Source: Armatimonadota bacterium
Lineage (GTDB): Bacteria > Armatimonadota > HRBIN16
Direction of reading: 5' to 3'
Assembly (NCBI GenBank): GCA_026003175.1
Contig: BPGT01000001.1
Coordinates: 372,001-436,000, forward strand
DNA length: 64,000 nucleotides
The position numbers and the translations under genes were made by a program. Below, piece by piece: positions 22,358 through 48,543 of the stretch. Positions within the stretch are counted from its first letter, which is position 1. Every line of letters begins with the position of its first letter. Under the pieces are notes generated by a model, which worked only from the letters and a program-made list of their open reading frames with translations, ran no database searches and had not been told where the DNA came from.

Positions 22358-22561
22358 GGGAGACGTGAGGGTGTTCGAGAATTGTTGAGAAGTTGGTTGT
22401 AGCGCAAGGAGAGAGGCGTTCTTGCTATCCCTGCCTTACCTCACCCCCGTCCCCTCTCCTACGAGGAGAGGGGCGTTCCCCCTTCCCTTGCAGGGAAGGG
22501 GGCAAGGGGGTTAGGTTATCTATCCATTCAACCAGCAATTTCGAACACCCTCGGGAGACGT
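22358..22561. mobile_element. 186-bp MITE, copy 1, with 9-bp target duplication
   Basis: The element occupies 22367-22552 and is flanked by identical GGGAGACGT at 22358-22366 and 22553-22561. Its ends are inverted: GAGGGTGTTCGA on the left and the same 12 bases on the minus strand at the right, continuing as AATTG after one extra base. The interior has two GC-rich hairpins and no ORF. Copy 2 at 48349-48534 is identical except for one base (22461 A, 48443 G). Non-coding, short, with terminal repeats and clean duplications, it fits a MITE mobilised by a transposase elsewhere in the genome. It inserted between the GGDEF gene and the dxs promoter. Confidence 0.85.
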
Positions 22562-22589
22562 TGACACCCCGTGTTGACTGAGGTAAACT
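22561..22589 (+). promoter_or_regulatory. sigma-70 promoter of dxs
   Basis: TTGACA at 22561-22566, a 17-base spacer and TAAACT at 22584-22589. The expected start is near 22596, giving a leader of about 34 nt before the GTG at 22630. The first T of the -35 is also the last base of the MITE target duplication. Confidence 0.65.
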
Positions 22590-22629: not shown

Positions 22630-24540
22630 GTGCATCTGCTGGAGACCGTTCGTTCGCCTGCTGACCTCAAATCTCTGAGCCGGGAGCAGCTTCGGCAGCT
22701 CGCGGCGGAAATACGAGAGACCATCATTGAAACCCTCTCACGCACCGGCGGGCATTTGGCGTCCAATCTGGGCACCGTTGAGTTGACCATTGCCTTGCAC
22801 AGCGTGTGGCACATGCCCAAAGACAAGATTATCTGGGATACGGGGCATCAAGCATACGCGCACAAGCTGCTTACCGGCAGGCTGGAGCGGTTTGGTACAT
22901 TGAGGCAGTATGGAGGCATCAGCGGCTTTTTGCGTCGCGATGAAAGCGAGTACGATGTATGGGGTGCGGGACACGCAGGCACGGCTATCTCCGCGGCGCT
23001 GGGGTTTGCGAAGGCTCGCGATTTGCGCGCCAGCGATGAGCGCGTGGTGGCGGTGGTAGGCGATGCCGCGTTGACCGCTGGCATGGCGTTAGAAGCGCTG
23101 AACAATGCAGCAGAGGCAAAGACCGACCTCACCGTTGTGCTCAACGATAACGAAATGTCTATCGCCGAAAACGTCGGTGCGCTGGCAACCTTCCTTTCTC
23201 GCCTGCGGGCACAGCCCTGGTACCAGCGGGCAGAACATCGGGCAAAGGAGATGCTAGAGGGATTGCCGGGCAAGGCACGTGTGCTTGCCAAGCATGCCAG
23301 AGGGCTGAAGCACAGTATCACCCATATCATCGCCCCTGAAAACACCGGAGCCATCTTCGAAGAGATGGGGTTCGAGTATATCGGTCCGCTGGACGGACAT
23401 GATATCGACCTGCTGATAGACGTTTTCTCTCATGCCCGCGACCTCAGGGGACCGGTGCTGATTCACGTCATCACCGTCAAGGGTAAGGGATATGAGTTTT
23501 CCGAAGCCGATGCGCGCAAGTACCATGGCGTAACCCCCTTCTGCATCCATGACGGCAAGATGGAGAAAAAGACGGGTGGGGAAACCTATACCCAGGTTTT
23601 TGCCGATGAACTGGTGCGCATTGCTGAAGAGAACCCTAAAGTGGTGGGCATTACGGCAGCTATGCCCGATGGAACAGGGTTAGCCAAGCTACAGGAGCGA
23701 TTCCCCGAGCGTTATTTCGACGTGGGCATTGCCGAACAACACGCAGTCACCTTCGCAGCTGGCTTAGCGGCAGAGGGCATGATACCGGTCGCTGCCATCT
23801 ACTCCACCTTCCTGCAACGCGCTTTTGACCAGATTCTGCACGATGTCGCTATCCAGAATCTGCATGTAGTGCTGGCGATGGATCGCGGAGGACTAGTGGG
23901 CGACGACGGCGCCACGCACCACGGCGTGTTCGACCTTTCGTACCTGCGCCTTATCCCAAACGTGGTGATTATGGCACCCAAGGATGGGGAGGAGCTACGT
24001 GCTATGCTTCGCTTCGCCGTCTCACACAACGGTCCCATAGCCTTGCGCTACCCGCGAGGTTCGGTTCCCGCTATCGACTGGGGCGTGCCCGAAAGCCCGA
24101 TAGAGCTGGGCAGGGCGGAAGTACTGCGCGAGGGAGAGGATGTGGCGGTTTTCGCCGTTGGCTCGATGGTAGCCACGGCATTTGCGGCGGTGAAACAGCT
24201 GGAACAGGAAGGAATCCATGCCGCGCTAATCAACGCCCGCTTCGTGAAACCGCTGGATAAAGAGACCGTCCTGCGCTTTGCGCATCGTGTCCCCCGTTTT
24301 GTGCTGGTAGAGGAAAACGTGATATGTGGGGGATTCGGTTCGGCAATACTGGAACTACTGGCACACGAAGGCGTTACCGGCGTGCAGGTGAAGCACTTGG
24401 CTGTGCCCGACGAATTCATTGAGCACGGCTCGGTGGATATCTTGCGCAGACTGGTTGGGTTGTCTACGGAACATATTGTGGAAGCGGCACGCGCGTTGTG
24501 TGGCGTCCCGCGCAGGGCGCCCGCGGTGCTTGCCGACTGA
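22630..24540 (+). CDS. dxs: 1-deoxy-D-xylulose-5-phosphate synthase
   Basis: Condenses pyruvate and glyceraldehyde 3-phosphate using thiamine diphosphate, the first step of the MEP isoprenoid pathway. The 636-aa length is normal. Visible signatures include the early HxS/LGTVELT segment with SRTGGHLASNLGTVELT, the ThDP/Mg site VVGDAALTAGMALEALNNA and NDNEMSIAENVG, the GLDGHD-like PLDGHDIDLL, and the transketolase pyrimidine-domain motif DRGGLVGDDGATHHGVFD. It starts at GTG 22630 with AAGGAG seven bases before. It is transcribed from the promoter next to the MITE. The small membrane gene at 24606 follows. Confidence 0.95.
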   Translation: MHLLETVRSPADLKSLSREQLRQLAAEIRETIIETLSRTGGHLASNLGTVELTIALHSVWHMPKDKIIWDTGHQAYAHKLLTGRLERFGTLRQYGGISGFLRRDESEYDVWGAGHAGTAISAALGFAKARDLRASDERVVAVVGDAALTAGMALEALNNAAEAKTDLTVVLNDNEMSIAENVGALATFLSRLRAQPWYQRAEHRAKEMLEGLPGKARVLAKHARGLKHSITHIIAPENTGAIFEEMGFEYIGPLDGHDIDLLIDVFSHARDLRGPVLIHVITVKGKGYEFSEADARKYHGVTPFCIHDGKMEKKTGGETYTQVFADELVRIAEENPKVVGITAAMPDGTGLAKLQERFPERYFDVGIAEQHAVTFAAGLAAEGMIPVAAIYSTFLQRAFDQILHDVAIQNLHVVLAMDRGGLVGDDGATHHGVFDLSYLRLIPNVVIMAPKDGEELRAMLRFAVSHNGPIALRYPRGSVPAIDWGVPESPIELGRAEVLREGEDVAVFAVGSMVATAFAAVKQLEQEGIHAALINARFVKPLDKETVLRFAHRVPRFVLVEENVICGGFGSAILELLAHEGVTGVQVKHLAVPDEFIEHGSVDILRRLVGLSTEHIVEAARALCGVPRRAPAVLAD

Positions 24541-48311: not shown

Positions 48312-48340
48312 ACGTTAGCATAGATAAATATTTTTGTCAA
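48312..48340 (-). promoter_or_regulatory. promoter of the surface-protein gene next to MITE copy 2
   Basis: On the minus strand TTGACA (plus 48335-48340), a 17-base spacer and TAACGT (plus 48312-48317) preceded by TGC, an extended -10. The -10 is weak. The first T of the -35 is the last base of the MITE target duplication, as at dxs. Confidence 0.45.
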
Positions 48341-48543
48341 GCCTTCTGGAGGGTGTTCGAGAATTGTTGAGAAGTTGGTTGTAGCGCAAGGAGAGAGGCG
48401 TTCTTGCTATCCCTGCCTTACCTCACCCCCGTCCCCTCTCCTGCGAGGAGAGGGGCGTTCCCCCTTCCCTTGCAGGGAAGGGGGCAAGGGGGTTAGGTTA
48501 TCTATCCATTCAACCAGCAATTTCGAACACCCTCAGCCTTCTG
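48340..48543. mobile_element. 186-bp MITE, copy 2, with 9-bp target duplication
   Basis: The element occupies 48349-48534 with identical AGCCTTCTG at 48340-48348 and 48535-48543. It matches copy 1 (22367-22552) at 185 of 186 positions; only 48443 differs. The duplication sequence differs from that of copy 1, which is strong evidence of separate transposition events rather than a larger duplication. It lies upstream of the surface-protein promoter and has the opposite orientation relative to its gene compared with copy 1. Confidence 0.85.

What the first reader, a model, noticed from the sequence alone, without database searches (positions are those of the whole stretch)
22358..22561. Two near-identical 186-bp MITEs with terminal repeats and perfect 9-bp target duplications
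22367-22552 and 48349-48534 are the same 186-bp sequence with a single mismatch (22461/48443). Both have inverted ends starting GAGGGTGTTCGA, no ORF, and each is flanked by its own perfect 9-bp direct repeat (GGGAGACGT; AGCCTTCTG). Different duplications at two sites show independent transposition, so the element has been mobile recently. IS10/IS50- or IS903-like transposases make 9-bp duplications, but no transposase is in the window.
Basis: seen in the sequence. Interest (0 to 1): 0.8.

Follow-up and report, generated by a model that had tools for sequence, protein, structure and literature searches.

The report
Promoter-targeting MITE and its parent IS
The two 186-bp repeats belong to a family of about 100 nearly identical mobile elements in one hot-spring bacterium (Armatimonadota), and almost every copy, like its ~1-kb parent insertion sequence, has inserted at one exact place, directly in front of the "-35" box of a gene promoter, a precise and apparently unreported landing rule for bacterial transposons.

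Summary
The 186-bp element occurs at least 97 times in the 4.1-Mb genome, about half the copies identical, each with its own 9-12 bp target duplication. The unseen feature is the target. In about 87 of 93 insertion clusters the duplication ends in the first T of a TTGAC -35 box, usually followed at 16-18 bp by a -10 box: 66 of 75 flanks match TATAAT at 4/6 or better, 50 at 5/6 or better, versus 0-3 at other offsets. Both window copies fit; one sits in front of dxs. The dxs, ffh and carB promoters are conserved but mostly empty in sister species; a few carry separate insertions at the same promoters. A ~1-kb autonomous IS with matching ends and an IS5-like DDE transposase (PF01609) follows the same rule in this genome, a sister species and another family of the phylum. 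A distant named relative, Thermus ISTth7, does so at 9 of 17 sites. Target chemistry is unresolved: the transposase may read T^TGAC directly (favoured, because ISTth7 also hits TTGAC inside genes) or be guided by promoter-bound RNA polymerase.

The parts
22367..22552 (+). MITE copy 1 (186 bp)
22358..22366 (.). target-site duplication of copy 1, left (GGGAGACGT)
22553..22561 (.). target-site duplication of copy 1, right (GGGAGACGT); its last T is the first T of the -35 box
22367..22378 (.). left terminal inverted repeat GAGGGTGTTCGA
22541..22552 (.). right terminal inverted repeat TCGAACACCCTC
22438..22517 (.). GC-rich palindromic segment inside the MITE (element 72-151), also found alone in many copies across the genus
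22561..22566 (+). -35 box TTGACA of the dxs promoter, the insertion target
   Evidence: conserved in sister species
22584..22589 (+). -10 box TAAACT, 17 bp from the -35 box
22630..24540 (+). dxs (1-deoxy-D-xylulose-5-phosphate synthase, named from the translation) downstream of the targeted promoter
48349..48534 (+). MITE copy 2 (186 bp, 1 mismatch)
48340..48348 (.). target-site duplication of copy 2, left (AGCCTTCTG)
48535..48543 (.). target-site duplication of copy 2, right (AGCCTTCTG)
48335..48340 (-). -35 box TTGACA on the minus strand, target of copy 2
48312..48317 (-). weak -10 box TAACGT, 17 bp from the -35 box (3/6 match)

Best explanation
The 186-bp repeat is a non-autonomous element (MITE) moved in trans by a ~1-kb IS5-like insertion sequence that shares its first 11-12 terminal bases. 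The transposase cuts the target with a 9-bp (sometimes 10-12 bp) stagger. One cut is anchored between the first and second T of a TTGAC(A/T) -35 box, and the other lies 9-12 bp upstream. After repair the -35 box is rebuilt on the downstream side, so the core promoter (about -45 to +1) stays intact and only DNA further upstream is displaced. This gives the element a relatively harmless and abundant landing place. Because the insertion recreates its own target, further elements can land at the same promoter and build chains element-TSD-element-TSD-promoter. SHOWN by sequence: the anchoring, the promoter-like flanks, the duplications, the chains, and the same rule in the IS and in another family. 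INFERRED: mobilisation of the MITE by this IS, the promoter activity, and that the transposase reads the T^TGAC sequence itself as the main determinant, with promoter context as a second contribution through RNA polymerase or through loss of insertions inside genes.
For: Target rule: 77 of 99 paired copies have TGAC directly after the duplication on at least one side; 66/75 distinct flanks have a -10 of 4/6 or better and 50/75 of 5/6 or better at spacing 16-18, versus 0-3 (5/6 or better) at other offsets; 74/75 have a same-direction ORF starting within 350 bp, median about 40 nt from the predicted TSS. About 87 of 93 clusters are at a TGAC or at a promoter. Empty sites: the dxs, ffh and carB promoters are conserved in sister species while the DNA upstream differs. 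Separate hits at the same promoters: G005 dxs and ffh, G006 ffh, G004 carB. IS: 1012-bp copies with the same ends, 9-11 bp TSDs and the same target in G000 and G004 and in KatS3mg016. The TIR-N8-11-TTGAC signature is abundant only in the two families that carry the IS; reversed control about 0. 31/53 sites in the second family have a -10 of 5/6 or better at 16-18. Direct reading of TTGAC: ISTth7 shows T^TGAC at the 9-bp position at 9/17 sites, including inside the ago gene.
Against: The MITE and IS share only the terminal 11-12 bp, so another related IS could be the mobiliser. No transposition was observed. If only the sequence TTGAC were read, most insertions should fall in genes: 73 of 84 TTGAC sites in the window are coding, yet no clear insertion into a coding TTGAC was found in this genome, so either promoter recognition or strong selection is also needed. 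Four TSD-flanked copies (L008, L030, L048, L057) are at no recognisable promoter.
Confidence: 0.8

Rival explanations
1. RNA-polymerase-guided targeting: the transposase docks on promoter-bound RNA polymerase or sigma region 4 and inserts just upstream, as yeast Ty3 does at Pol III promoters. The TTGAC motif then reflects the promoter, not transposase-DNA contacts.
For: Of eight isolated TSD-flanked copies without TTGAC, four sit at promoters with a weak -35 but a 5/6 or 6/6 -10 at exactly 17 bp: TTGTGT-17-TATAAT (L039), TTGCCT-17-TACAAT (L059, L061), TTGCGA-17-GATAAT (L082); P about 1e-6 against random flank positions. Inserted TTGAC sites have a -10 more often than uninserted intergenic TTGAC[AT] (66/75 vs 18/28, Fisher p=0.008). 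No clear insertion in a coding TTGAC although 87% of TTGAC sites in the window are coding.
Against: The relative ISTth7 uses T^TGAC inside the ago gene and at other GC-rich sites without a -10 (L292, L293, L282). 9 of 75 sites here have a poor -10. The ISTth7 transposase is only about 30% identical, so it may differ.
Confidence: 0.33
2. No target choice beyond weak preference: the elements insert widely and only insertions upstream of core promoters survive selection.
For: Intergenic survivors are expected for any mobile element; coding insertions are almost absent here.
Against: Selection cannot place the cut to the base: the duplication ends in the same T of TTGAC in 76 flanks, nearly always on one side only, with 9-12 bp freedom on the other side. 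About half the copies are sequence-identical, so there was little time for sieving.
Confidence: 0.04
3. The -35/-10 sequence belongs to the element (an outward promoter carried by the MITE) rather than to the target.
For: Promoters lie right beside the element ends, and other MITEs carry promoters (PMC10969869).
Against: The duplication lies between element and -35 box, the downstream sequences all differ, and the dxs, ffh and carB promoters exist without the element in sister species.
Confidence: 0.01

Closest known systems
ISTth7 (IS5 family, ISH1 group; Thermus)
   Same: About 30% identical transposase, ~1-kb element, 9-bp duplications seen here, and T^TGAC at the 9-bp position at 9 of 17 sites, several with a -10.
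   Different: Different terminal repeats (GGGCTTGCC), several insertions inside genes. The literature table lists an 8-bp duplication and the paper does not use the word promoter or the motif TTGAC (PMC6352166).
ISAae1 (IS5-like; Aquifex aeolicus)
   Same: 31% identical transposase over most of its length.
   Different: Terminal repeat TTGTAAACC; the one copy inspected shows no 9-bp duplication and no adjacent TTGAC.
Bacterial MITEs (Correia, MITEAba12 and others)
   Same: Short, no ORF, inverted ends, target duplications, dependence on a related IS.
   Different: Those in the review consulted are described as carrying promoters or inserting near genes; the passages read describe none as inserting at a fixed base of the -35 box.
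IS200/IS605 elements with TTGAC or TTGAT targets (from memory)
   Same: A TTGA(C/T) target motif beside the element.
   Different: Those are HUH-transposase elements without target duplication; this is a DDE element with 9-12 bp duplications.
Yeast Ty3/Ty1 upstream of Pol III genes; plant Mutator elements at gene 5' ends (from memory)
   Same: Works like them: integration just upstream of core promoters as a relatively harmless site.
   Different: Eukaryotic and unrelated; here the anchor is the bacterial -35 box.

Membership tests
MITE | short non-coding element with terminal inverted repeats | tested here: met
   186 bp, matching 12-bp ends, no ORF of its own
MITE | target-site duplications differing between copies | tested here: met
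MITE | ends shared with an autonomous element in the same genome | tested here: met
   IS L011/L105 shares GAGGGTGTTC(G/A)A, target and TSD; homology beyond 11-12 bp not seen
MITE | mobilised by that autonomous element's transposase | not testable with these tools
   inferred from shared ends, target, chains and composite units
IS5 family (parent IS) | DDE_Tnp_1 transposase domain | tested here: met
   PF01609 E=3e-7, 30.8 bits against cut-off 23
IS5 family (parent IS) | NCBIfam IS5 equivalog score above cut-off | tested here: not met
   NF033579 39 bits against 140; ISAae1, annotated IS5-like, also fails (97 bits)
IS5 family (parent IS) | sequence relation to named IS5 members | tested here: met
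   ISAae1 31% and Thermus loci carrying ISTth7 30%
IS5 family, ISH1 group | 8-bp duplication as tabulated for ISTth7 | tested here: not met
   9-12 bp here; ISTth7 copies themselves show 9 bp
IS200/IS605 | no target duplication, HUH transposase | tested here: not met
   TSDs present, DDE transposase

The most novel reading that the evidence does not exclude
A bacterial IS/MITE family that selects its target through the transcription machinery (promoter-bound RNA polymerase/sigma), inserting base-exactly upstream of the -35 box: a bacterial counterpart of Ty3-type promoter-proximal integration.
Probability: 0.33. Interest if true: 0.93.

Novelty: new variant of a known kind. Interest (0 to 1): 0.77.

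Why it matters
It gives a clear, testable landing rule for a bacterial DDE transposon: the -35 box of housekeeping promoters, leaving the core promoter intact. It explains how an element can reach about 100 copies in a compact genome without breaking genes, and how chains of elements form at one promoter. The occupied flanks act as a natural promoter map for an uncultured lineage. If the transposase is guided by RNA polymerase, it would be a new kind of link between transcription and transposition in bacteria; if it reads T^TGAC alone, it is a compact sequence specificity that happens to coincide with promoters. The partial match in ISTth7, an active laboratory IS, makes both directly testable.

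Tried and rejected
AlphaFold of the Fimbriimonadales transposase gave pLDDT 40 and was not used; no PDB relative by sequence. Literature searches for promoter- or TTGAC-targeting insertion sequences returned nothing relevant; the held library lacks most subscription journals, so this is weak evidence of novelty. Using coding insertions to separate direct reading from RNA-polymerase guidance failed, because only one insertion (L048, a repeat-protein gene) is clearly inside a gene. Segmental duplication as the source of the copies was rejected: flanks differ, except L048/L049. Element-borne promoters were rejected through empty sites.

Full report
WHAT WAS CHECKED. Both window copies are as described: 186 bp, one mismatch at 22461/48443, ends GAGGGTGTTCGA / TCGAACACCCTC, and perfect 9-bp duplications GGGAGACGT and AGCCTTCTG. 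The genome (4.1 Mb, 7 contigs) holds 97 exact 18-bp left ends (reversed control 0) and about 100 right ends. I fetched flanks for 99 paired copies. Of 95 counted strictly, 50 are identical and most others differ by 1-3 bases, so the expansion is recent. Duplications are mostly 9 bp, with some of 10, 11 and 12. Named relatives of the IS place the host near Fimbriimonadales in the Armatimonadota; the host genome itself is unnamed.

THE TARGET. In 77 of 99 copies the base after the duplication starts TGAC on at least one side, and the last base of the duplication is nearly always T, so the junction reads N8-T^TGAC(A/T). The other end of the duplication varies by up to 3 bp, so one cut is anchored and the other floats. 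Sixteen to eighteen bases beyond TTGACA/T lies a TATAAT-like hexamer: 66 of 75 distinct flanks match at 4/6 or better and 50 at 5/6 or better, while other offsets in the same flanks give 0-3 at 5/6 or better. The favoured spacings are 17 and 18. A same-direction ORF of at least 80 aa starts within 350 bp of the predicted start in 74 of 75 (this ORF count has no control of its own). These look like sigma70-type promoters, and the element sits directly upstream of the -35 box. In the window, copy 1 gives TTGACA-17-TAAACT in front of dxs. Copy 2 gives TTGACA-17-TAACGT on the minus strand (a weak -10).

EMPTY SITES AND REPEATED HITS. The dxs, ffh and carB promoters are conserved in sister species, most of which lack the element, with the DNA upstream of TTGACA diverged. 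The same promoters appear to have been hit separately in other species: G005 dxs carries a related element with duplication AGAATTTGT/AGGATTTGT. G005 ffh, G006 ffh and G004 carB show element-like ends 9 bp before TGAC (only one end was read for these three, read by eye).

CHAINS, COMPOSITES, RECOMBINATION. Allowing for four clusters that were listed twice because a shorter locus cut the chain, there are 93 insertion clusters, about 87 of them at a TGAC or at a promoter (the merging was done by hand, with L131 added by hand). About 15 are chains of two or three elements separated by one duplication, as expected if an insertion recreates its own target. Some dimers have moved as units: MITE-GTTCCATCT-MITE occurs inside other duplications at L089/L125 and L081, and MITE-CGTGTCCGT-MITE from L053 recurs at L042. 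L052 and L110 carry exchanged flanks, which points to recombination through the element.

THE PARENT IS. A 1012-bp element (L011 1698-2709) has the same terminal 11-12 bases, an 11-bp duplication and the same target (TTGACA-17-TAGAAT), and encodes a 333-aa transposase. Pfam: DDE_Tnp_1, E=3e-7, above cut-off; NCBIfam: nearest IS5 model, below its cut-off. Relatives occur in 16 of 291 genomes of the phylum, in two families. Copies in G004 (78% identical) and KatS3mg016 (73%) show the same target. Not every IS copy does: L114 has no TTGAC and L119 and L145 have no clear -10. The combined signature (element end, 8-11 bases, TTGAC) is frequent only in those two families: 83 in G000, 38 in G209, 22 in G201; reversed control near 0. 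In 53 sites sampled from the second family, 31 have a -10 of 5/6 or better at spacing 16-18, and 11 show one at 19-21 (the two sets may overlap). There, duplications are often missing and many elements are one-ended or flanked by two outward promoters, which I did not resolve.

BEYOND THE PHYLUM. The nearest named elements are ISAae1 (Aquifex, 31%) and ISTth7 (Thermus; IS5 family, ISH1 group). Of 17 distinct ISTth7 sites on Thermus plasmids, 9 have T^TGAC at the 9-bp position, some with a -10 (for example TTGACA-16-TATAGT in L298). Others lie inside genes or GC-rich DNA with no -10, including the insertion in ago (L292). An ago insertion of ISTth7 is known from the literature in laboratory-adapted strains (PMC6352166), and that paper does not mention a promoter target. 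ISAae1 does not show the rule in the single copy examined.

HOW IT WORKS. Two readings fit. (1) The transposase reads the -35-like sequence T^TGAC itself. ISTth7 supports this, and most intergenic TTGAC[AT] sites in this genome are promoter-like anyway (18 of 28). (2) The transposase is guided by promoter-bound RNA polymerase. This is supported by four copies at promoters with a weak -35 but a strong -10 at exactly 17 bp (P about 1e-6 against random flank positions; the eight copies considered were picked by inspection), by 66/75 versus 18/28 (p=0.008), and by the absence of clear coding-TTGAC insertions although 73 of 84 TTGAC sites in the window are coding. ORF-based coding calls are crude, and most TTGAC in genes here is followed by C or G rather than A or T, which weakens that last point. 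I favour (1) as the main determinant, with promoter context contributing, at roughly 55 to 33.

WHAT IS NOT SHOWN. No transposition, transcription or binding was measured. That this IS mobilises the MITE rests on 11-12 shared terminal bases, the shared target and duplication, and mixed chains. The statement that promoter-exact targeting is unreported rests on searches of an open-access library only.

Noticed in passing
22438-22517 (element positions 72-151): The middle of the MITE is a GC-rich double palindrome (CCTCACCCCC...GGGGTTAGG) that occurs alone, also in tandem, in many copies across the genus and in shorter form in other Armatimonadota; the MITE seems to have captured it or to be its host.
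   Followed up: partly
L121, L123, L125, L127, L129: Five IS copies are a 989-bp form with the reading frame split near residue 83/84 (98% identical), yet at least some lie inside target duplications; they may move in trans or by programmed frameshifting.
   Followed up: no
L052 and L110 (also L129 and L077): Exchanged flanks between two element loci: apparent genome rearrangement by recombination through the MITE.
   Followed up: partly
L205, L207, L214, L215, L223, L231, L236 (second family of the phylum): Elements without target duplication but with an outward TTGAC promoter at about 9-12 bp on each side; many others there are one-ended. Partly a sampling effect of how regions were fetched.
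   Followed up: partly
L048 and L049: Two MITE copies 4.4 kb apart with the same 9-bp duplication and nearly identical flanks inside a repeat-protein gene: a segmental duplication, and the one clear coding insertion.
   Followed up: partly
L174 (G008 dxs promoter): A degenerate element-like end (TTCCAAACACCCT) 10 bp before TTGACA, possibly an old further insertion at the dxs promoter.
   Followed up: no
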